From Eggerthellaceae bacterium (GTDB lineage: Bacteria > Actinomycetota > Coriobacteriia > Coriobacteriales > Eggerthellaceae), in the NCBI GenBank assembly GCA_900754955.1, contig CAAEEV010000043.1, positions 1 through 12,189 of the forward strand: 12,189 nt of DNA, read 5' to 3'. This document shows positions 2,274 to 12,189 of the stretch, piece after piece (position 1 is the stretch's first letter; every line of letters begins with the position of its first letter). The position numbers were made by a program, and so were the translations under genes. The notes beneath the pieces are model-generated. The model was not told the DNA's origin, did no database searches, and was given only the letters and a program-made list of their open reading frames with translations.

Positions 2274-4505
2274 TTAGAAATCCTGCGTCTCGCACTTGTG
2301 AACGGCGGCGGCGACACCGGTCTGCTGCCACGAACCGATCAGCTGGTCGAGCGTGTCGGGATCGTCGTCGAGCAGCACGTTGGCGTTGCACTCGAACGCG
2401 CCGAACAGGCTCGGAAGCGCCTCTTCCTTCTCGGGGAACCACCAGTCGTGCTGGATGGAGATGACGCGCGGGTCGAGCGAGGTGTTGAGGCGCGCACGCT
2501 GGCGGATCTTGCCCTTGTGCGTCTCGATCCAGCACCAGTCGCCTTCGTGGATGTCGAGGTCGATCGCCGTGGTCGGATGGATGTCGAAGATCGGATCCGG
2601 ATGCAGGTCACGATAAGGGCCGGGCTGACGATGCTCGGTGTGGTACATCGGCATGAAGCGGGCGCCCGTGATCATGATGAGCGGATACTTGTCGGCCCAC
2701 TCGGGATGCTTCTCGACCGACAGCGCCGGGTACTCGAACGACGGCAGCGGATCGAAGTCGCGGCCGGTCTCCTTGGCGAGCTGCTCGATGACGGTCGAGT
2801 ACAGCTCCACCTTGCCCGTCGGGGTCAGGAACTTGAAGCCGGGCTCCTTCCACTTCTCCCACTTCTTCTGGCCGACCATGTACTTCACGTCGTTGTAGAA
2901 CTTCTCGTACGTGAGGCCCATGGGAGCGAGCTGGAAGTCGAGCATGTCGGTGGCCTTCGGGCCCCACCACTTGTCTTCCTGGCCCACGCGGCTCGCGAGG
3001 CCGTACCAGAACTCGTAGTCGTCGCGGAAGTCGACGTCGGTGCCGCCCTCGAAGCGGTCGATGACGCGCGCCTGGGCGCCGAAGTACATCGGGCGATGGT
3101 TCATGACGGTGTAGCAGTTGTCAGGACGCTCGAGCCAGGTGGCGGCGGGCAGGACGTAGTCGGCGAGCGCGCCGGTCGGGGTCATGAAGTAATCATGCAC
3201 GACGAGCAGCTCGAGGTTCATGAACGCCTCGACGATGAGCTTGGTGTTCGAGTACGCCATAACCGGGTTGTCGGCCTGGACGATGAGGGCCTTCACCGGA
3301 TAGGGATCGCCGTCGCGCATGGCGCGGAACAGCAGCGGAGCGCAGGCGTACGGGTAGAACGACGGATACGCCTGGGAGATGATGTCCCAGCCCTTGTAGG
3401 TCAGGCCCGGGAAGCGGTCGTTGCCGATCATCTTGTCGCGCTGCTCCTGCGGAAGCGCGTAGTGCTCGTAGAACGACGGTGGGAAGCGGGACGGAGGAGC
3501 GATGAGCTCGCCGCCCTTGCGGTCGATGTGGCCGGTGATGGCACGCAGGATTGCCTTCGCGCGGATGGTGCTCGTGGCGTTGAGACCGCTCGCGTCGCCG
3601 CCCTTCTGGCCCCACGGCAGGCAGGCTGCCGGGGTGGTGGCGTACATGCGGGCTGCCTGGCGAATCTTGTCCTCGGGCACCCAGGTGATCTCGGAGACCT
3701 TGTCAACTGGATACTCGGCCGCGCGCTCCTTGAGCTGATCGAAGCCGTAGCACCACTCGTCGACGAACTCGTGGTCGTAGAGGTCTTCCTCGATGATGAC
3801 GTTGATCATGCCGAGGGCGAGCGCCGCGTCGGTGCCGGGGCGCAGCTGCAGCCACAGGTCGGCCTGCTGGGCGACCTCGGAGCAGCGCGGATCGATGACC
3901 ATGAGCTTCGCGCCGCGCTCCTTGCGGTTGGTGTCGACCCAGTGCCACAGCAGCGGCTCGGAGGCGATGGTGTTGCGGCCCCAGAGAACCACGAGGTCGG
4001 CGCCGACCCAGTCGGACTTGTCAGAGCAGAACCCGCCGTAGGTGCAGGGCTCGAGCCACATGTCGGAGCTGTAGCAGATGGTGCCCACGCCGCCGGTGTT
4101 CGGGCTGCCGAAGAGGTTCGTGAACTTGTAGTGCAGCCACGTCCAGGTGCGTGCGGTGCCCTCGGTGAAGGCGAGCGTCTCGGCGCCGTACTCGTCGCGC
4201 AGCTCGATGAGCTTGGCCGCGATCTCGTCGAACGCCTGATCCCAGGAGATCTCCTCCCACTTGCCGCCGCCGCGCTCGCCGGCGCGCTTGAGCGGTCTCT
4301 TCAGGCGGTTCGGGTTGTACACGAAGCCGTCAAGGTAACGCTGCTTGTCGAGACGCTGGCAGACATAGCCCTTGTTGTGCGGGCAATCGGGATCGCCCTT
4401 GATGTCGATGATCCTGCCGTTCTTCTTGGTGACGAGCACGCCGCAGCGCACGTGGCAGAAATAACAACCAGCTCGCAGAACCTCGATCTTATCGGTGTCA
4501 GCCAT
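2274..4505 (-). CDS. Acetylene-hydratase-like molybdopterin/tungstopterin oxidoreductase (743 aa)
   Basis: A DMSO-reductase superfamily catalytic subunit of full length. The N-terminal [4Fe-4S] site is C14, C17, C21 and C49, with R51 two residues on, where many relatives have Lys. Cys144 in GTICYSSD aligns by eye with the tungsten-ligating Cys141 of Pelobacter acetylene hydratase, and many stretches resemble that enzyme (WDQALDEIA-like, TDAALALGMINVII, QFMTPTA-like, LADYVLPAATWLERP). The C-terminal molydop-binding domain is ~608-743. The key Asp13 of acetylene hydratase is His18 here, so hydration of acetylene is doubtful. Other relatives in this branch are pyrogallol transhydroxylase and the gut catechol dehydroxylases, which makes an aromatic or plant-phenol substrate plausible. 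There is no Tat signal, so it is cytoplasmic. No Fe-S or membrane partner is adjacent. GGAG lies only 2 nt before the ATG. Family is secure; substrate and metal are unknown. Confidence 0.93.
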   Translation of the reverse strand: MADTDKIEVLRAGCYFCHVRCGVLVTKKNGRIIDIKGDPDCPHNKGYVCQRLDKQRYLDGFVYNPNRLKRPLKRAGERGGGKWEEISWDQAFDEIAAKLIELRDEYGAETLAFTEGTARTWTWLHYKFTNLFGSPNTGGVGTICYSSDMWLEPCTYGGFCSDKSDWVGADLVVLWGRNTIASEPLLWHWVDTNRKERGAKLMVIDPRCSEVAQQADLWLQLRPGTDAALALGMINVIIEEDLYDHEFVDEWCYGFDQLKERAAEYPVDKVSEITWVPEDKIRQAARMYATTPAACLPWGQKGGDASGLNATSTIRAKAILRAITGHIDRKGGELIAPPSRFPPSFYEHYALPQEQRDKMIGNDRFPGLTYKGWDIISQAYPSFYPYACAPLLFRAMRDGDPYPVKALIVQADNPVMAYSNTKLIVEAFMNLELLVVHDYFMTPTGALADYVLPAATWLERPDNCYTVMNHRPMYFGAQARVIDRFEGGTDVDFRDDYEFWYGLASRVGQEDKWWGPKATDMLDFQLAPMGLTYEKFYNDVKYMVGQKKWEKWKEPGFKFLTPTGKVELYSTVIEQLAKETGRDFDPLPSFEYPALSVEKHPEWADKYPLIMITGARFMPMYHTEHRQPGPYRDLHPDPIFDIHPTTAIDLDIHEGDWCWIETHKGKIRQRARLNTSLDPRVISIQHDWWFPEKEEALPSLFGAFECNANVLLDDDPDTLDQLIGSWQQTGVAAAVHKCETQDF

Positions 4506-5797: not shown

Positions 5798-6355
5798 GTG
5801 TCAACGTACGATGACGGGCATATCGCCGCCAAGGAGAGGAAACGGGGCGCGAAAGGCGTCGACTCGACGGTGCGGCGCGTGAACGCGGTGCTTGCCGCTG
5901 CACTCGCGGTGTTCTTCTTCGGTCATGCGCTTCTCGGCGCGGCATCGCAGAGCGTGCCTGCGCTTATCGGCCATACGGCGCCCACGGCGCTTATCGTCTG
6001 CTTCGCGGGTGTTGCCGGCGTCCATATCGTCGCGAGCATTCTGACGACTTATTTCATGTTCACCGACACCGTGCGCCCGCCGAGCGCCAAGAAACGCGCT
6101 CACCAGTGGCTCAAGTGGGCATCGGGCGCGTTCCTTGCCGTCGTTGCGGCGGGGCATGCGCTCTGCCCCGAGGGGGATTTCGCGCCGTTTCTTCTGGCGA
6201 CGCTCGCCGTGCTTCTGTGGCATACCTATGTGGGCTGCAAGTCGCTCGTGCGCGACCTCAGCCTTCCACGCAGCTTCAAGCTCGGGCTGCGCATCGCTGC
6301 GATCGTCGTTGCGCTCGGCGTGGCGGCGCTCGTTGGAGCCGCAGCGCTTCAGTAG
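5798..6355 (+). CDS. Five-helix membrane protein, candidate dihaem cytochrome b (185 aa)
   Basis: The start is GTG at 5798, with a GAGG about 8 nt upstream; it is plausible but not certain. Hydrophobic segments lie at about 29-50, 62-88, 105-123, 129-148 and 162-184. Single histidines fall in the first four: H43 (FFFGHALLG), H76 (VAGVHIVAS), H120 (AAGHALC) and H142 (LLWHTYVG). Four histidines in four helices plus a fifth helix is the plan of the dihaem membrane subunit of Wolinella-type fumarate reductase (FrdC), and loops such as DTVRPPSAKKRAHQWLKW fit a cytoplasmic face. No FrdA/FrdB-like partners are next to it, so it is an orphan here. It may serve a flavin or molybdoenzyme encoded elsewhere, with menaquinone as partner. 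Being a membrane protein is secure; haem binding is inference. The tungsten operon converges on it from the other strand. Confidence 0.75.
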   Translation: MSTYDDGHIAAKERKRGAKGVDSTVRRVNAVLAAALAVFFFGHALLGAASQSVPALIGHTAPTALIVCFAGVAGVHIVASILTTYFMFTDTVRPPSAKKRAHQWLKWASGAFLAVVAAGHALCPEGDFAPFLLATLAVLLWHTYVGCKSLVRDLSLPRSFKLGLRIAAIVVALGVAALVGAAALQ

Positions 6356-6450: not shown

Positions 6451-7143
6451 TTACCTCTCGAGGGGCATGTCGTCGCAGACGCCGCTGAGGGCGTCGATCA
6501 TGAGGAGGCGCCCCCTGATGAGCCCGCCGCGATCAAGCAGCACCTTCACCGCCTCGGCGCTCTGGAATGCAGCGGTGGCGACTGCGGTGAAGGGCAGCAC
6601 GCCCTCGGTCTTCTCGATGCCCGACCCTTCGGCAGTGCCGTATATGGTGACGAACGACGCATCGCCGGGCATGACCGTGCACACCTGGCCGTACCAGCCG
6701 GCTACGGCGCCGTAGACGAGCGGCGTGCCCTCCTCCTGGCAGGCGTGCGCGAGCCAGAAGCGCGCGTGCAGGTCGTCGAGGGCGTCGATCGCACAATCGA
6801 CGTTCGCCGCAAGCGCGCGGGCGTTCTTCTCGCCGAGCCGCTCGACGCGTGCCTCGATGCGCACGAGCGGGTTCACGGCGGCGACGCGCTCGGCGGCGGC
6901 CTGCGCCTTCGACGTGCCGATCGTGGTTTCGGTGGCGAGCAGCTGGCGGTTGAGGTTGCTCTCGTCGAATACGTCGCAATCGAGCGCGATGATGCGCCCC
7001 ACGCCGATGCGCGCGAGCGACTCGATCACGTATCCGCCGAGCCCGCCGCAGCCTGCGACGAGCACGGTTTTCTCAGCAAGCACCGCGCACTCCGCCTCGC
7101 TGAGTGCGGCGCGGTTTCGCAGGTAACGGGCGGGGAGGGTCAT
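6451..7143 (-). CDS. ThiF/MoeB/HesA-family adenylyltransferase (230 aa)
   Basis: The start at 7143 (MTLPARYLRN) has GGAG 4 nt upstream; the longer frame runs into structured spacer and is rejected. The ATP-binding motif is GCGGLGG at 31-37, followed by DCDVFDESNLNRQ (55-67) with the catalytic Arg66, and GTSKAQAA at 77-84. These E1-like enzymes adenylate the C-terminal Gly-Gly of MoaD or ThiS proteins so that sulfur can be loaded for pterin-dithiolene or thiazole synthesis. The zinc-binding CxxC pairs of E. coli MoeB and ThiF are missing: the region that should hold PCYRC reads ASFVTIYG. It is the last gene of the tungsten operon, and its likely partner is the GG-ending protein at 10427-10699. 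A function in making or sulfurating the tungstopterin of the aldehyde oxidoreductase is the natural inference. Confidence 0.88.
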   Translation of the reverse strand: MTLPARYLRNRAALSEAECAVLAEKTVLVAGCGGLGGYVIESLARIGVGRIIALDCDVFDESNLNRQLLATETTIGTSKAQAAAERVAAVNPLVRIEARVERLGEKNARALAANVDCAIDALDDLHARFWLAHACQEEGTPLVYGAVAGWYGQVCTVMPGDASFVTIYGTAEGSGIEKTEGVLPFTAVATAAFQSAEAVKVLLDRGGLIRGRLLMIDALSGVCDDMPLER

Positions 7144-7371
7144 GGATGCTCCTTCAGAGAGGATGGCGGCGATAAGACGCGCGCTGGCGCCGGAGGTGTG
7201 CCGCCGGAGATACGCGCCGCCAGCGGCGGGCGGGGTGCGCGCCGCTGGCAAGGGTGTGCATTGCCGGCGAGGGTACGAGCCAGCCGCACGACGTGCCTGC
7301 CAGCGCGTATCCCCGGCGGGCTTAAAGCGCCATCGGGACGCAACATCGTGGCGCGTCCCGATGGCAAAGGG
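7144..7371 (-). ncRNA. Structured intercistronic RNA before the ThiF-like gene
   Basis: This 228-nt spacer contains a 13-bp perfect hairpin (7329-7341 with 7353-7365), then a closing stem of 16 pairs (7304-7319 with 7201-7216), an inner 10-bp hairpin (7219-7228 with 7240-7249) and a small GCAC/GTGC hairpin (7286-7296). The one non-canonical pair of the closing stem is G-U on the minus strand but A-C on the plus strand, which points to function in minus-strand RNA. It ends ~58 nt before the ThiF-like start, as a cis-regulatory leader would. Control by a molybdenum or tungsten cofactor (Moco/Tuco riboswitch) is an attractive idea, but I could not match the known consensus by eye. Confidence 0.45.
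7329..7365 (-). terminator. Hairpin directly after the NuoG-like gene
   Basis: GCCATCGGGACGC (7329-7341) and GCGTCCCGATGGC (7353-7365) form a perfect 13-bp stem with an 11-nt loop, 6 nt past the stop at 7372. On the minus strand it is followed by GCTTTAAG, a very short U stretch. It may be a terminator, perhaps leaky since the ThiF-like gene follows, or an mRNA 3'-end stabiliser. Confidence 0.6.
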
Positions 7372-8139
7372 CTACACGTTGCGGTAGGTGTCGCGCATCG
7401 AATCGGCGATGACGCGCCTGCGGCAGGCGGCGCACACTGCCGGCACGCTCACCGTCTCGTTGCGCTGCGACCATGCGATCGATTCGGGCGTGCCCATGAT
7501 CGCGCCGCATGAATGGCACTTCACAAGGTCGAACGTCTTGTTCCAGATGGTGCGCTGGTCGGCGTCCTGCGTGTAGGTGATCTCACCGGTGGGGCACACG
7601 TTCGCGCATGACAGGCACCCGACGCAGGCAAGCGCCTCGGTGTCGTAGGGCGTGCTCACCTTCTTGTCGGTGCCGCGCATGACCGTGCTGATGGCGCCGG
7701 TTCCAAGCGCGTTGCACGCCTGTACGCACAGGCCGCACAGGATGCACTTGCCCGCGTCGAGCGCGGTGAGGCGCGCGAAGCCGGCGTCATCGTGCGCGCC
7801 GAGCTTCTCGGCCACGTCGTACATGTACTCCGAGTCGGGCGCGCGCCGCTCGAGCAGCGCCATGAGCACGGCGCGCTCCTCGCGGATGCGGTCGGTCTTC
7901 GTGCGCACGATGCATTCCTGCTCGACGGGGTACACGCAGCTCGTGACCACCTTGGTGCGACCGCGCGTCTCCACCTCCACGATGCAGATGCGGCAGCACG
8001 CACGATGGTCCTCGAAGGCGTCCGAGCGGCAGAGCGCGGGGATGCGGATGCCGTTGCGCTTCGCCACGTCGTAGAGGTATTCGCCCTTCTCGCAGGTGCA
8101 CGGCACGCCGTCGATCTCGATGGTCAGCATCTCGGCCAT
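7372..8139 (-). CDS. NuoG/HoxU-like iron-sulfur subunit (255 aa)
   Basis: It starts at 8139, 1 nt after the NuoF-like stop, with GGGAGG upstream; a second Met follows at residue 4. Residues 1-80 are a plant-type [2Fe-2S] domain with C37, C49, C52 and C68. The His/Cys region that binds an additional [4Fe-4S] cluster in NuoG is absent (VLMALLERRAPDSEYMYDVA). Two bacterial-ferredoxin [4Fe-4S] sites follow: C132, C135, C138, C142 and C172, C175, C178, C182. A C-terminal addition carries C208/C211 and C236/C239, possibly one more zinc or Fe-S site. It most likely wires electrons between the tungsten subunit and the NuoF-like flavoprotein, as the A subunit of bifurcating complexes does. There is no hydrogenase H-cluster domain, so it is not a hydrogenase catalytic subunit. 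Confidence 0.9.
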   Translation of the reverse strand: MAEMLTIEIDGVPCTCEKGEYLYDVAKRNGIRIPALCRSDAFEDHRACCRICIVEVETRGRTKVVTSCVYPVEQECIVRTKTDRIREERAVLMALLERRAPDSEYMYDVAEKLGAHDDAGFARLTALDAGKCILCGLCVQACNALGTGAISTVMRGTDKKVSTPYDTEALACVGCLSCANVCPTGEITYTQDADQRTIWNKTFDLVKCHSCGAIMGTPESIAWSQRNETVSVPAVCAACRRRVIADSMRDTYRNV

Positions 8140-8140
8140 C

Positions 8141-9934
8141 CTAATCCCTCCCTTCGGTTCTCACGGCATTGAAGCGGCACGCCTCGCGGCAGCTGCCGCA
8201 GGCGATGCACTTCTGCGGGTCGATGGCGTGCGCTTCCTTGAGCGCGCCCGAGATCGCATCGGCCGGGCAGGCGCGCGCGCAGGCGCCGCAGCCCGTGCAC
8301 GTTTCGGGATCGATGACGAAACGCGTGAGCTTGGCGCAGACGCCGGCGGGGCAGCGCCGCTCGCGGATGTGCGCCTCGTACTCGTCGCGGAAGAACTTGA
8401 TGGTGGTGAGCACGGGGTTGGGAGCGGTGCGGCCGAGCGCGCACAGCGATGCGTCCTCCATCGTGTGCCCGATGCGTTCGAGCAGCTCGATGTCGCCTTC
8501 TTGGCCGCGTCCCTCGCAGATGTCGGTGAGGATGGCGCGCATCTGGCGCAGACCCTCGCGGCACGGCGTGCACTTGCCGCAGCTCTCCTCGCAGAGGAAG
8601 TCGACGTAGTAGCGCGCCACTTCCACCATGCAGGAGCGGTCGTCCATGACGATCATGCCGCCCGAGCCCATCATGGCGCCGTACTGCGTGAGCGTATCGA
8701 AGTCGACGGGCAAATCGAGCAGGCTTTCGGGGATGCAGCCGCCGGAGGGGCCGCCGGTTTGGATCGCCTTGAACGGGCGGTCGCCCATGATGCCGCCGCC
8801 GATGTCGTAGATGAGCGTGCGCAGCGTGGTGCCCATCGGCACCTCGACGAGGCCGGTGTTCTTCACCTTGCCCACCATGGCGAACACCTTGGTGCCCTTG
8901 GAGGTTTCGGTGCCGAGCTCGGCGTACTTGTCGCCGCCTTCGCGCAGGATGTAGGGGATCGAGGCGAGGGTCTCCACGTTGTTGAGCACGGTGGGTTGGT
9001 CGAACAGGCCGCGCTGCACGCTGCGGATGTACTTGGCGCGCGGCTCGCCGACGCGCCCCTCGATGGACGCCATGAGCGCGGTGGACTCGCCGCAGACGAA
9101 CGCGCCGCCGCCGCGCACGATGGAGAGGTCGAGCTTGTGGCCCGACCCCATGATGGAGGGTCCAAGGATGCCGGCGGCGTACGCGTCGTCGATGGCGCGC
9201 TGGATGTGGCCGCGGGCGAGCGCGTACTCGTCGCGGATGTAGAGGATGCCCTCCTCGGCGCCGATGGCGAGCGCGCCGATGATCATGCCCTCGATCACGG
9301 CGTGGGGGCAGCCCTCCATGGTCGAACCGTCCATGAACGCGCCGGGGTCGCCCTCGTCGCCGTTGCACACGATGTACTTCGGGAAGTTGTCGTAGCCGGC
9401 GGCAGTGCGCCACTTGCGGCCGGTGGGGAAGCCCGCGCCGCCCTTGCCACGCAGGCCGCTCTTCTCAACCTCGGTGATGATCTCGTCGGGGGTCATCGTG
9501 AGCGCGCGCTCGAGGCCCTGGTAGCCACCGCGTGCGCGGTAGGCGTCGAGGGAGAGCGGGTCGATCACGCCCACGTCGGCGAGCACGATCTTGTGCTGCT
9601 TCGCGTAGAACGGGTTGTCGGCAAGGTGCTCGAAGTACTCCTTGCCCTCGCGGTACATGAGGCGCTTGACGGGATCGCCCTCGATCGAGTCGATGATCGC
9701 GGGCACGTCCTTCGCCTTCACCTGGTAGTACACGAGATCGCGCGGCATGAAGCGCACGACGGGCCCCTTCACGCACTGGCCCGAGCAGCCGGTGCGCACG
9801 GTTTTCACCGAGACGTTGCCGATGCCCTTGCGGGCCGCGAGCTCGCGCTCGATCGCCGTGGCGACGTCGAGGGCGCCGTTGGCGATGCAACTCGTGCCGC
9901 AGCAGACGAGGATCTCGCTGACGTCAGCGCTCAT
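8141..9934 (-). CDS. NuoF-like flavin/Fe-S subunit of a bifurcating-type complex (597 aa)
   Basis: The start at 9934 (MSADVSEILV) has AGGAGG 6 nt upstream; an ATG one codon earlier is possible. It overlaps the NuoE-like gene by 11 nt. Domain order: an N-terminal thioredoxin-like [2Fe-2S] module (C11 or C12, C16, C50, C54), the NuoF core with FMN/NADH loops GKGGAGFPTG (163-172) and GGGAFVCGE (275-283), an SLBB region, a [4Fe-4S] site C452, C455, C458 and C498, then CPAGVC (528-533), and a C-terminal two-cluster ferredoxin (C546, C549, C552, C556; C576, C579, C582, C586). Plain complex I NuoF lacks the first and last modules. This longer plan is that of HydB-type subunits of electron-bifurcating enzymes. 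Expected role: NAD(H) exchange at FMN, coupled with ferredoxin. Confidence 0.93.
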   Translation of the reverse strand: MSADVSEILVCCGTSCIANGALDVATAIERELAARKGIGNVSVKTVRTGCSGQCVKGPVVRFMPRDLVYYQVKAKDVPAIIDSIEGDPVKRLMYREGKEYFEHLADNPFYAKQHKIVLADVGVIDPLSLDAYRARGGYQGLERALTMTPDEIITEVEKSGLRGKGGAGFPTGRKWRTAAGYDNFPKYIVCNGDEGDPGAFMDGSTMEGCPHAVIEGMIIGALAIGAEEGILYIRDEYALARGHIQRAIDDAYAAGILGPSIMGSGHKLDLSIVRGGGAFVCGESTALMASIEGRVGEPRAKYIRSVQRGLFDQPTVLNNVETLASIPYILREGGDKYAELGTETSKGTKVFAMVGKVKNTGLVEVPMGTTLRTLIYDIGGGIMGDRPFKAIQTGGPSGGCIPESLLDLPVDFDTLTQYGAMMGSGGMIVMDDRSCMVEVARYYVDFLCEESCGKCTPCREGLRQMRAILTDICEGRGQEGDIELLERIGHTMEDASLCALGRTAPNPVLTTIKFFRDEYEAHIRERRCPAGVCAKLTRFVIDPETCTGCGACARACPADAISGALKEAHAIDPQKCIACGSCREACRFNAVRTEGRD

Positions 9935-10415
9935 CATGCTCCTCCTCTCCGTTGGCGTACTGGTCGATGATGCCGCGCACCTGCTCGACCTTGAGCTTGT
10001 TGTGATAGGTGCCGTCGACCACCATGACCGGCGCGAGTGCGCACGATCCGAGGCAGTTGACGAGCTCGACCGAGAACAGGCCGTCCTCGGTGGTTTGCCC
10101 CGGATCGATTCCAAGCTCTCTCTTGAGCTGCGTGACGAGGTTCATCGAGCCGCGCAGGTGGCAGGCGGTGCCGTTGCACACTTTGATGATGTGCTCGCCC
10201 TTCGGCGTGAGCGACAGCGCCTTGTAGAACGTCGCCATGGAGTACAGCTGCGCCACGGGGCATCCCAGGTGCAGGGCGAGCTGGCGCAGGCCCGGCTCGG
10301 GGATGTAGTTGAAGGCGTGCTGCATGTCCTGGAGCGCGGCGAGCGCGTAGCGCTGGTCGGGCGGATACGCCTCGATGATCTCCCTGATCTTCTCTTTTTG
10401 TTCCTCTTTGGCCAT
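9924..10415 (-). CDS. NuoE-like [2Fe-2S] thioredoxin-fold subunit (163 aa)
   Basis: The helical N-terminal part (residues 5-65) and the thioredoxin-like [2Fe-2S] domain are both present. Ligands C80 and C85 (VCNGTAC) and C121 and C125 (CLGSC) have the C-x4-C and C-x3-C spacing of the 24-kDa complex I subunit. The start at 10415 (MAKEEQKEKI) has a weak GAAGAG upstream. An ATG at 10430 overlaps the stop of the MoaD-like gene as ATGA and would add five residues, so translational coupling is likely either way. It pairs with the NuoF-like protein to form the NAD-reactive part of the complex (the C subunit in bifurcating enzymes). Confidence 0.93.
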   Translation of the reverse strand: MAKEEQKEKIREIIEAYPPDQRYALAALQDMQHAFNYIPEPGLRQLALHLGCPVAQLYSMATFYKALSLTPKGEHIIKVCNGTACHLRGSMNLVTQLKRELGIDPGQTTEDGLFSVELVNCLGSCALAPVMVVDGTYHNKLKVEQVRGIIDQYANGEEEHDER

Positions 10416-10426
10416 AACTGCTCTTC

Positions 10427-10699
10427 TCATCCGCCGGCAACGAGGGGCGTGACGGCGACGTAGTCCTGCTCGGTGAGCGCCGTGTCGGCGCCGTCGAGGT
10501 GCTCGATGTGGCGCCCGTTCACGAGCACGATGACGTCGTCGCCCAATCCCGTGCCGTCTTCGTTCAATACGAGGTTCCTGAACGCGGGCCACCGCTGCGC
10601 CAGGTCGTGCATGAGAGCGAGCACGTTTGCGGGTGCGGGCACCTCGCAGGTGCGGCAGCCGGTGATCTGGCGGTAGGTGGCGAAGAACTTCACGAGCAT
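10427..10699 (-). CDS. MoaD/ThiS-family sulfur-carrier protein ending in Gly-Gly (90 aa)
   Basis: The start at 10699 (MLVKFFATYRQITG) has AAGGAG 7 nt upstream; the long frame from 11209 is an overlap with the oxidoreductase gene. The beta-grasp pattern (VKFFATYRQITG, DDVIVLVNGRHIEHLDG, LTEQDYVAVTPLVAGG) and the exact C-terminal Gly-Gly identify a MoaD-type ubiquitin-like protein. The terminal glycine is adenylated by an E1-like enzyme, then thiocarboxylated to donate sulfur for the dithiolene of molybdopterin. C15 and C18 make a CxxC not needed for that role. MoaD-like genes beside aldehyde oxidoreductase genes are common and are thought to serve the tungsten form of the cofactor. Its likely activator is the ThiF-like protein at the operon's end. 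Confidence 0.92.
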   Translation of the reverse strand: MLVKFFATYRQITGCRTCEVPAPANVLALMHDLAQRWPAFRNLVLNEDGTGLGDDVIVLVNGRHIEHLDGADTALTEQDYVAVTPLVAGG

Positions 10700-10727
10700 G
10701 CAAAGCTCCTTTTTCTCGTTCAGGCGG

Positions 10728-10866
10728 AAAAACCGCAGTGCCCGCCGCCCGCGCAACGGGTGCGCAGGCGGCGGGCTTGCGATGCGTGCCGGCAGATTCG
10801 CACCTGTCGGGTGCCCCTCGCGGCGTTGTTGTGCTGCGCGAGAGCACCGCAGCGCGGGCCTGCCGG
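10728..10866 (-). promoter_or_regulatory. Attenuator-like structured spacer between the oxidoreductase and MoaD-like genes
   Basis: On the minus strand GGTGC (10848-10844), GCACC (10814-10810) and GGTGC (10804-10800) occur in order, so the middle segment can pair with either outer one. The first choice is reinforced by CTCGCG/CGCGAG (10842-10837 with 10822-10817), and CCGGCAG/CTGCCGG (10866-10860 with 10795-10789) closes the whole. Next comes a strong hairpin (10776-10740), then five Us at 10732-10728 just before the MoaD-like Shine-Dalgarno. Mutually exclusive stems before a terminator-like hairpin are what an attenuator or riboswitch would show. The ligand, if any, is unknown. Confidence 0.45.
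10740..10776 (-). terminator. Terminator-like hairpin upstream of the MoaD-like gene
   Basis: GCCCGCCGCC (10740-10749) pairs with GGCGGCGGGC (10767-10776); with one G-U pair on the minus strand and four inner pairs the stem reaches 15 bp with a 7-nt loop. TTTTT follows 7 nt later on that strand. The U-run is displaced from the stem, so termination may be partial. Confidence 0.55.
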
Positions 10867-10872
10867 GGATTG

Positions 10873-12189
10873 CTACAGCGACAGCTCCTCGAGCTTGGCG
10901 GGCGTCGGCTCGCCCTCGGCGGTCCAGCCGCGCTCGGCGTAGTACTCGGCGAGCATGGTCTGCAGCTCGCTGACCTTGCCCTTCGCCGGGCCGCTCGGCA
11001 GCGCCTCGCGCAGCAGGCGCGGAGGCAGGGTGTCCTTCTCGACGCCGGCCGCCATGTTGAAGCGCTTCTCGAGGTTCCAGATGCGCTCGCCCTTGAGCAG
11101 GATGTCCTCGTCGGACTCGTCGGAGCCGACGGCCTCGCGGTACTGCCCCGCGATCTCGGGCAGGCCGATGGCGAACGTGGTGAACAGGCACATGCCCGTG
11201 GAGTCGCACAGCGCCGTGAGGTCCTGGAACGTCTTGAGCATCGACGCCTTGCCCTCGGTGACGAGCGGATCCATCTTCACGGGCAGACCGAGCACCTCGG
11301 GGCTGATCATGTAGCCGCGCACGTGGCAGCCGCCGCGGTTCGACGTAGCGTATTCGAGGCCGATGCCCTGGATGGCGCGGCCGTCGTAGGCGGGCATCTC
11401 CTGCTTCTTGACGCTCATGGACAGCTCGGGATGTCCGTACTTCTCGGCCATGCGGTAGGAACCCATGCCGATGATCTTGCCGAAGCCCTCGCCGTCAGCG
11501 CACAGCTGCGTGAGCTTGACCATCGCCTCGGCATCGCCGAAGCGCAGCGGGAAGCCGATGTCGCTCTCGGGAATGTAGCCGGCCTCGAAAAGCTCCATGG
11601 CGCAGGCGACGGTGGAGCCGAGCGTGATCGGATCCATGCCCTGCTCGTTGCAGATGAAGTTGCACTTGCAGATGGCGGCGATGTCGTTCACGCCGCAGGC
11701 GGCGCCGTAGCTCCAACCCGCCTCGTACTCGGGGCCTTCGCCGAAGCCGTCGAAGTTGCCGCGGCCCTCGACCTTGGTGATGCGGCCGCAGGCGATCGAG
11801 CAGCCGAAGCAGCCCTGGTTCTTCACGAGGTGCGTCTTGACGAGCGTCTCGCCGCTCGTGTCGTCGGCGTCCTCCCAGTAGGAGCCGTCGCGCGCGTTGC
11901 GCAGCGGCAGGCCGCCCACCTCGTTGACGATGTTCACGAGGATCTGCGTGCCGAGCGCGCCGAGGCCCTCGCCGGTGACCGGATGCGCCTGCAGCGTGGC
12001 GCGGGCGCGCGCCACCTCCTTCATGAACGCGGCGGGGCGCGCGACCTTCACGCCGCCCGTGCCGCGCACGACGACGGCCTTGAGGTTCTTCGAGCCCATG
12101 ACCGCGCCCATGCCGCCGCGGCCTGCGGCGCGGTTCTTGTCGTTCATGACGGCGGCGAAGAGCATCATGCGCTCGCCGGGCGTGCCGAT
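10873..12189 (-). CDS. Tungsten aldehyde:ferredoxin oxidoreductase, catalytic subunit (5' truncated)
   Basis: The gene runs off the right edge; 438 C-terminal residues of an expected ~600 are present. The fragment begins IGTPGER and soon shows AGRGGMGAVMGSKNLKAV, a hallmark of the family. The [4Fe-4S] ligands CxxCxxxC appear in NQGCFGCSIACG (bases ~11811-11788). The pterin motif DxxGxC is CDSTGMC (~11208-11188), whose last Cys is the fourth cluster ligand. These enzymes hold a bis-pyranopterin tungsten cofactor and oxidise aldehydes to acids. Here the electrons should pass to the NuoG/F/E-like subunits encoded downstream, giving NADH and reduced ferredoxin if the complex bifurcates. Any small ferredoxin-like subunit (WorS type) would lie outside the window. 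A long structured spacer separates it from the MoaD-like gene. Family is secure; the aldehyde substrate is unknown. Confidence 0.95.
   Translation of the reverse strand: MGTPGERMMLFAAVMNDKNRAAGRGGMGAVMGSKNLKAVVVRGTGGVKVARPAAFMKEVARARATLQAHPVTGEGLGALGTQILVNIVNEVGGLPLRNARDGSYWEDADDTSGETLVKTHLVKNQGCFGCSIACGRITKVEGRGNFDGFGEGPEYEAGWSYGAACGVNDIAAICKCNFICNEQGMDPITLGSTVACAMELFEAGYIPESDIGFPLRFGDAEAMVKLTQLCADGEGFGKIIGMGSYRMAEKYGHPELSMSVKKQEMPAYDGRAIQGIGLEYATSNRGGCHVRGYMISPEVLGLPVKMDPLVTEGKASMLKTFQDLTALCDSTGMCLFTTFAIGLPEIAGQYREAVGSDESDEDILLKGERIWNLEKRFNMAAGVEKDTLPPRLLREALPSGPAKGKVSELQTMLAEYYAERGWTAEGEPTPAKLEELSL

What the first reader, a model, noticed from the sequence alone, without database searches (positions are those of the whole stretch)
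6451..12189. Bifurcating-type tungsten oxidoreductase operon with its own MoaD/ThiF pair
Seen: AOR-family subunit, GG-ending MoaD-like protein, NuoE-, NuoF- and NuoG-like subunits and a ThiF-like E1, all on one strand with overlaps. The NuoF-like protein has the extra N- and C-terminal Fe-S modules typical of HydB-type bifurcating subunits. Known: WorABCSL-type tungsten oxidoreductases couple aldehyde oxidation to NAD and ferredoxin reduction. Inferred: this is such a complex, with a dedicated sulfur-carrier system for tungstopterin, probably for aldehyde detoxification or amino-acid/alcohol fermentation in the gut.
Basis: partly seen in the sequence, partly recalled or inferred. Interest (0 to 1): 0.7.

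Follow-up and report, generated by a model that had tools for sequence, protein, structure and literature searches.

The report
Gut bacterial bifurcating tungsten aldehyde oxidoreductase
This is very probably the gene cluster for a tungsten enzyme that oxidises aldehydes and splits the electrons between two carriers; the same kind of enzyme is already known from other gut bacteria, so it is a new member in a different bacterial class and not a new kind of system.

Summary
On the minus strand at 6451-12189 lie WorL (AOR; 163 N-terminal residues beyond the window edge), WorX (MoaD-like, ends GG), WorC, WorB, WorA and a ThiF-like E1 (F): a Class IV (bifurcating) tungsten oxidoreductase operon of "type 1" order. 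The missing WorS lies directly upstream of worL in 80 of 80 related loci, so it is expected just right of 12189. L, B, A and C, and a relative's S, have the Acetomicrobium mobile enzyme (9mqx) as best solved relative. WorB carries all ligands of the bifurcating core, including the diagnostic histidine, and groups with AmWOR1, apart from NuoF and HoxF. The AOR active-site residues are conserved. Gene set, order, WorX and the W-cofactor idea are published (2006-2026). What I add: the cluster is conserved in Coriobacteriia with F downstream of worA, and in 119 Eggerthellaceae genomes a WorX-type gene follows AOR (18 of 19 with, 1 of 100 without), while 66 genomes have MoaC and a weak MoaE-like protein without recognisable MoaD. 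That favours a WOR-dedicated sulfur carrier. Bifurcation, metal and substrate remain inferred.

The parts
10873..12189 (-). worL: tungstopterin catalytic subunit (AOR family), C-terminal 438 of 601 residues; 5' end beyond the window
   Evidence: AFOR_C 459.5 bits; P0002 100% identical full-length copy; best PDB 9mqx_D, AmWOR1; T244, E319, Y431, H452 of P0002 align to PfAOR T243, E313, Y427, H448
10427..10699 (-). worX: MoaD/ThiS-like sulfur carrier, 90 aa, ends in Gly-Gly
   Evidence: Sequence; 83 of its 90 residues given to Pfam (ThiS 40.3 bits) and NCBIfam (TIGR01687 moaD_arch 49.8 bits, cut-off 49.5); MoaD-type structures as PDB hits
9924..10430 (-). worC: NuoE/BfuC-like [2Fe-2S] subunit; ATG overlaps the worX stop (ATGA)
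   Evidence: 2Fe-2S_thioredx 158 bits; best PDB 9mqx_C, 136.8 bits, next 135.8
8141..9937 (-). worB: NuoF/BfuB-like FMN subunit with N-terminal [2Fe-2S] and C-terminal 2x[4Fe-4S]; complete B1-B5 ligand set
   Evidence: Pfam; best PDB 9mqx_B; ligands; tree
7372..8139 (-). worA: short NuoG/BfuA-like Fe-S subunit, 255 aa, with a C-terminal CxxC...CxxC also found in AmWOR1 WorA
   Evidence: Fer2_4, Fer4_7; best PDB 9mqx_A, 147 bits, next 73
6451..7143 (-). F: ThiF/MoeB-like E1 adenylyltransferase, presumably for WorX; conserved ATP-site residues, no invariant Cys
   Evidence: ThiF 175.7 bits; alignment with 49 relatives

Best explanation
A Class IV (electron-bifurcating) tungsten-containing aldehyde oxidoreductase, WorSLCBA, with its cofactor accessory genes worX and an E1 (F), from a Slackia-like member of the Eggerthellaceae (Coriobacteriia). 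WorL oxidises an aldehyde at a bis-pterin tungsten centre; electrons run through WorS and WorA to the FMN and Fe-S clusters of WorB/WorC, which reduce NAD+ and ferredoxin together. F adenylates the Gly-Gly end of WorX, which then carries sulfur for the dithiolene of the tungsten cofactor of this enzyme. Shown here: gene content, order, ligands, active-site residues, tree placement, co-occurrence. Inferred: host group (from relatives), tungsten, bifurcation, aldehyde range, sulfur transfer.
For: Best solved relative of all five subunits is AmWOR1 9mqx: D, B, A, C for the window or its full-length copy and E for the S of relative L001. Order S-L-X-C-B-A in 70 of 80 loci; the other 10 show the same order as far as subunits are found (6 SLXCB, 2 SLXC, 2 SL). 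WorB tree: window in the AmWOR1 + Wor clade at 100/97. B2-cluster ligands C436, C474, H523, C529, C534 and the cysteines of the other clusters are present, features that PMC9304861 says non-bifurcating homologues lack. WorL is 72% identical to that of E. callanderi. E1 residues of the ATP site are invariant in 49 relatives. WorX adjacent to AOR in 18 of 19 AOR-bearing Eggerthellaceae genomes, a WorX-type gene in 1 of 100 others.
Against: No biochemical result exists here for this protein. Partly purified E. limosum WOR (type 1 order like this one) reduced Fd but not NAD in vitro; its authors put this down to lost function or too low activity (PMC13390469 passages), so shown bifurcation rests on the A. 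mobile enzyme. In the WorL tree AmWOR1 is not inside the window's clade but pairs weakly (89/65) with the class III AaAOR on long branches. WorC hits do not discriminate between 9mqx and bifurcating hydrogenases. Two homologues without the terminal Fe-S modules keep part of the B2 residues. WorS was not seen in the window.
Confidence: 0.9

Rival explanations
1. An NAD-linked, non-bifurcating AOR: the NuoEFG-like module only passes electrons to NAD+, as in HoxF- or FdsB-type enzymes.
For: Simultaneous NAD and Fd reduction could not be shown for the E. limosum enzyme in vitro, though there it was NAD that was not reduced.
Against: WorB has the N-terminal and C-terminal clusters and H523, a set missing from E. 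coli NuoF, Cupriavidus HoxF and the Azospirillum FdsB-like protein in the same alignment, and does not group with them.
Confidence: 0.06
2. WorX and F are the general MoaD and MoeB of the cell, only parked in this operon, and serve every molybdo- and tungstoenzyme.
For: In Slackia equolifaciens WorX is the only MoaD/ThiS-family protein found; the second hit lies in a frame that I read by eye as RelA/SpoT. E. callanderi has three hits, two beside AOR genes and one beside a ThiF-family gene.
Against: 66 of 119 Eggerthellaceae genomes have MoaC and a MoaE-like protein with no small MoaD/ThiS protein; WorX tracks AOR, not MoaC. A second MoaD model gave nothing better than E 0.2 in 22 of 22 such genomes.
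Confidence: 0.3
3. WorX with F is a ubiquitin-like protein-modification pair instead of a sulfur carrier.
For: NCBIfam SAMP1 scores 52.5 bits with WorX, below its cut-off of 60; T. kodakarensis Ubls both conjugate to proteins and carry sulfur (abstract and one results section of PMC11323500).
Against: F has no invariant Cys among 49 relatives; the best, in the nucleotide loop, is kept in 86%. The genes of the operon itself include no protease or E2.
Confidence: 0.05

Closest known systems
Acetomicrobium mobile AmWOR1 (WorABCSL, PDB 9mqx), Class IV WOR
   Same: All five subunits (S judged on relative L001), ligand set, short WorA with the same C-terminal Cys pairs
   Different: Type 2 order CBASL there, type 1 here; B2 ligand C474 is Thr in AmWOR1
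Eubacterium limosum ElWOR1 (Class IV, type 1), seen here only through Eubacterium callanderi locus L039 (kinship recalled)
   Same: Order S-L-X-C-B-A; WorL 72%, WorB 67% identical to L039
   Different: In E. callanderi the best F match is on another contig (L084) and worS has a Mo/W riboswitch upstream; in Coriobacteriia-type loci F lies downstream of worA in 21 of 21 and no riboswitch was found in 9 of 9 scanned
AOR-MoaD-MoeB neighbourhoods (Iyer 2006) and aorABCDE of Aromatoleum aromaticum
   Same: Cofactor-type accessory genes beside an AOR, proposed for W-cofactor synthesis (passages)
   Different: Aromatoleum AOR has an FAD subunit (class III) in place of the bifurcating WorABC
Bfu family (PMC9304861), WOR branch
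   Same: BfuBC core with FMN and six clusters
   Different: The passages I read name Synergistetes and Firmicutes for Wor; this one is in Coriobacteriia

Membership tests
Class IV WOR (Putumbaka 2026) | WorL with AOR active-site residues | tested here: met
   T244, E319, Y431, H452 of P0002 align to PfAOR T243, E313, Y427, H448
Class IV WOR (Putumbaka 2026) | WorS with four [4Fe-4S] beside WorL | tested here: inconclusive
   Outside the window; directly upstream of worL in 80 of 80 related loci
Class IV WOR (Putumbaka 2026) | WorA, WorB, WorC genes in the same operon | tested here: met
   co-transcription itself not tested
Class IV WOR (Putumbaka 2026) | Simultaneous NAD+ and ferredoxin reduction | not testable with these tools
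   Needs the purified complex
Class IV WOR (Putumbaka 2026) | Tungsten in the cofactor | not testable with these tools
   Indirect only: a TupAB-like transporter, below the curated Tup cut-offs, follows the operon in L001
Bfu bifurcating family | B1-B5 ligands in BfuB including the conserved His of B2 | tested here: met
   H523 present in 69 of 72 distinct WorB of the loci, a gap in the other 3
Bfu bifurcating family | BfuB groups with bifurcating proteins and not with NuoF/HoxF | tested here: met
   36 rows
MoaD/MoeB-type sulfur carrier pair | C-terminal Gly-Gly on the carrier and E1 ATP-site residues | tested here: met
MoaD/MoeB-type sulfur carrier pair | Thiocarboxylate formation and transfer to MPT synthase | not testable with these tools
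   Needs biochemistry
Acetylene hydratase (gene 2274-4505) | Asp after the second cluster Cys (recalled as D13) | tested here: not met
   His18 in the window protein at the aligned site

The most novel reading that the evidence does not exclude
In Eggerthellaceae the tungsten enzyme has its own sulfur route (F and WorX), while molybdenum cofactor is made by a separate route that uses a divergent MoaE-like protein and no recognisable MoaD. The cell would then keep W- and Mo-pterin sulfuration apart, with this operon carrying the W side.
Probability: 0.25. Interest if true: 0.6.

Novelty: new member of a known kind. Interest (0 to 1): 0.3.

Why it matters
It extends the bifurcating tungsten aldehyde oxidoreductases, in a conserved S-L-X-C-B-A form with F downstream, to Coriobacteriia of animal and human guts. 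If WorX and F prove to be WOR-only, the family offers a natural test of how a cell keeps tungsten and molybdenum cofactor assembly apart: 66 of 119 genomes examined have MoaC and a MoaE-like protein but no recognisable MoaD.

Tried and rejected
Non-bifurcating NuoF/HoxF-type placement: rejected by tree and ligands. A two-enzyme acetylene route (the acetylene-hydratase-like gene at 2274-4505 making acetaldehyde for this WOR): rejected, because that gene has His for the Asp after the second cluster Cys and Tyr after the aligned W-ligand Cys (the roles of these residues are recalled), and in the 80 related loci its tblastn matches (E up to 1e-4, over 40 bits) reach 31% identity at most. Riboswitch control of this operon: a Mo/W riboswitch lies upstream of worS in 7 of 30 wor loci scanned, 0 of 9 Coriobacteriia among them; the window's own leader is not in hand. 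The reading that absent MoaE in Bacillota is new: PMC5039349 already reports it for acetogens (passage). Weak ThiS hits in frames of about 650-890 residues: three such frames were read (by eye two RelA/SpoT, one threonyl-tRNA synthetase); the rest I excluded by frame length and profile range alone. Genome search for the window itself: none held. My checkpoint note counts 11 'Clostridia/other' without MoaE; two of these, G011 and G012, are Coriobacteriia genomes, so the right count is 9 of 9 Bacillota plus those two.
Full report
WHAT IS THERE. Open frames and Pfam confirm six genes on the minus strand: worL (10873-12189, cut by the edge), worX (10427-10699), worC (9924-10430), worB (8141-9937), worA (7372-8139) and F (6451-7143). 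A protein search returned a 601-residue copy identical to the window part of WorL, P0002; 163 N-terminal residues lie outside. Close relatives bear names from Slackia and Eggerthellaceae, so the source is taken to be a member of the Coriobacteriia; the window's genome is not held.

THE MISSING SUBUNIT. A scan of one genome per species gave 80 loci, the cap, out of 237 that encode a relative. In all 80 a match to the polyferredoxin WorS of L001 ends 0 to 39 nt before the worL match. The order S-L-X-C-B-A is complete in 70 of 80; in the other 10 fewer subunits are found in the stretch, in the same order (6 SLXCB, 2 SLXC, 2 SL). F lies downstream of worA on the same strand in 21 of 21 Coriobacteriia-type loci that include worA; in L009 it is about 3.4 kb away and in L015 it matches in two pieces. 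In the 54 other loci the best F match is upstream on the same strand in 24, upstream on the other strand in 3, downstream in 1 and absent from the stretch in 26. I sorted loci into these two groups by record title.

WHICH ENZYME. By sequence against solved structures, the best match is the A. mobile bifurcating WOR, 9mqx: WorL to chain D (787 bits; next 701, AaAOR), WorB to B (738; next 695), WorA to A (147; next 73), WorC to C (137; next 136, so not discriminating), and WorS of L001 to E (135; next 115). PfAOR residues T243, E313, Y427 and H448, which PMC13328260 names as conserved in most aldehyde-oxidising members, align to T244, E319, Y431 and H452 of P0002.

BIFURCATING CORE. PMC9304861 (abstract, part 1 of one section and passages seen) gives the B2 ligands C438, C476, H525, C531, C536 of the NiFe enzyme and says that non-bifurcating homologues lack clusters B2-B5. 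The window has C436, C474, H523, C529 and C534, plus the cysteines of the other clusters. Among 72 distinct WorB from the loci the histidine is present in 69 with 3 gaps; C474 is Cys in 68, Thr in 2, Arg in 1, gap in 1. E. coli NuoF, Cupriavidus HoxF and an Azospirillum homologue (record without annotation; I label it FdsB-like) lack the set. Against a simple rule for the histidine: Sinorhizobium NuoF keeps three of the five aligned residues and a Flavonifractor homologue (L135) four, His included in both, though both lack the N- and C-terminal modules. In a 36-row tree (the window, 20 of the 72 WorB, three solved bifurcating proteins and 12 other homologues) the window sits with Coriobacteriia WorB (100/99), inside all Wor (100/99), inside Wor + AmWOR1 (100/97). 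The outgroup branches are long and their own order is unsure; the E. callanderi WorB was not among the rows. In a 32-row WorL tree the window's clade of 26 is supported at 100/99, but AmWOR1 lies outside it, paired weakly with AaAOR (89/65).

WORX AND F. WorX has the Gly-Gly end, and 83 of its 90 residues just pass the TIGR01687 cut-off (49.8 vs 49.5). F keeps GxGxxG, D55, D57, N63, R66, K79 and D123 in all 49 aligned relatives; no Cys is invariant (best C32, 86%). That suits an adenylating enzyme of MoeB kind. In T. kodakarensis one MoaD-like protein of three is needed for the W cofactor of one enzyme under sulfur-poor conditions (one section read).

IS THE PAIR DEDICATED? I searched 119 genomes of the family of S. 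equolifaciens, drawn evenly by the tool. AOR matches over 200 bits (a line I drew after seeing the list) occur in 19; 18 of them have a MoaD-like match within about 250 nt of the AOR match. The exception, G119, has only a partial AOR match (205 profile positions) that begins 3 bases from the start of its contig. Three of the 18 (G009, G064, G094) also have a further MoaD-like match that is not next to an AOR match. Among the other 100, 12 have a ThiS-like stretch of about 60 residues (read by eye; ThiF-, MoeB- or ThiG-like frames seen beside three, L146-L148; no family search was run on them), one (G039) has a WorX-type gene, and 87 have none. MoaC is found in 104 and a MoaE-like protein in 98 of 119 (95 over the cut-off); 66 genomes have both and no small MoaD/ThiS protein. 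A second model, TIGR01687, gave nothing better than E 0.2 in 22 of 22 such genomes and found WorX in S. equolifaciens; but that model passes its cut-off in only 4 of 14 control genomes, so it is a limited check. So WorX travels with AOR and not with the Mo cofactor genes. Limits: the genomes are related, so Fisher's p of 4e-19 overstates; MoaE scores are only 20-37 bits; a very divergent MoaD would be missed; and in S. equolifaciens WorX is still the only MoaD found. Lower-scoring AFOR matches (about 60-140 bits, perhaps the Class V enzymes that PMC13328260 names for Coriobacteria, not tested) were not counted as AOR.

NEIGHBOURHOOD. In L001 F is followed by a binding protein (NCBIfam TupA 146 bits, below its cut-off of 400; best PDB a tungstate-binding protein), a permease (second-best NCBIfam TupB, below its cut-off) and an ABC ATPase, then MoeA-like genes on the other strand. 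In the window F is followed instead by a convergent frame at 5798-6355. In E. callanderi and six other non-Coriobacteriia loci a Mo/W riboswitch precedes worS: 7 of 30 wor loci scanned, 0 of 9 Coriobacteriia.

HOW IT MOST LIKELY WORKS. Aldehyde + H2O is oxidised at W in WorL (inferred), electrons flow L-S-A to the FMN and clusters of B and C and split to NAD+ and, through B3 and B4, to ferredoxin (mechanism as hypothesised for the Bfu family). The likely use is removal of low aldehyde concentrations made in fermentation or met in the gut (published proposal for relatives; not tested here). A caution: bifurcation was shown for A. mobile and could not be shown for partly purified E. limosum WOR, whose authors suspect loss of function or too low activity.

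NOVELTY. Classes, operon types, WorX and a thiF beside a WOR are in print. One full-text search for tungsten + aldehyde + bifurcating + Coriobacter gave one paper, and the two places where its main text names Coriobacteria concern Class V; its figures and supplements were not seen, and subscription papers, such as the 2021 study that defined the clades, are not in the library. The Coriobacteriia branch may therefore be undescribed in the text I could search, but it is a member of a known kind.

Noticed in passing
window 2274-4505 (-): Acetylene-hydratase-like single-chain pterin oxidoreductase (2e7z 426 bits, next 195) with His in place of the Asp after the second cluster Cys; a small helix-hairpin-helix/DUF4332 protein follows at 1952-2269.
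   Followed up: partly
An orphan bifurcation module, a young deletion or an assembly fault; worA runs off the stretch fetched.
   Followed up: partly
119 Eggerthellaceae genomes: 66 genomes have MoaC and a divergent MoaE-like protein but no recognisable MoaD; how sulfur reaches their molybdopterin is unclear.
   Followed up: partly
G011-G021: MoaE not found in 9 of 9 Bacillota genomes with this operon, nor in two Coriobacteriia genomes (G011, G012); a published gap for acetogens (PMC5039349).
   Followed up: partly
L027 9311-9424, L039 9282-9395, L053 191-311, L054 894-1005, L056 313-424, L058 48-172, L072 2997-3115: Mo/W cofactor riboswitch (RF01055) just upstream of worS.
   Followed up: partly
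L057 7979-9160: MOSC-ThiF fusion upstream of worS, perhaps the E1 of that locus.
   Followed up: no
window 5798-6355 (+): Hydrophobic-looking 185-residue frame without Pfam or NCBIfam match at E 0.001, convergent with F.
   Followed up: no
L015 7381-8070: F matches in two pieces, perhaps a broken or interrupted gene.
   Followed up: no
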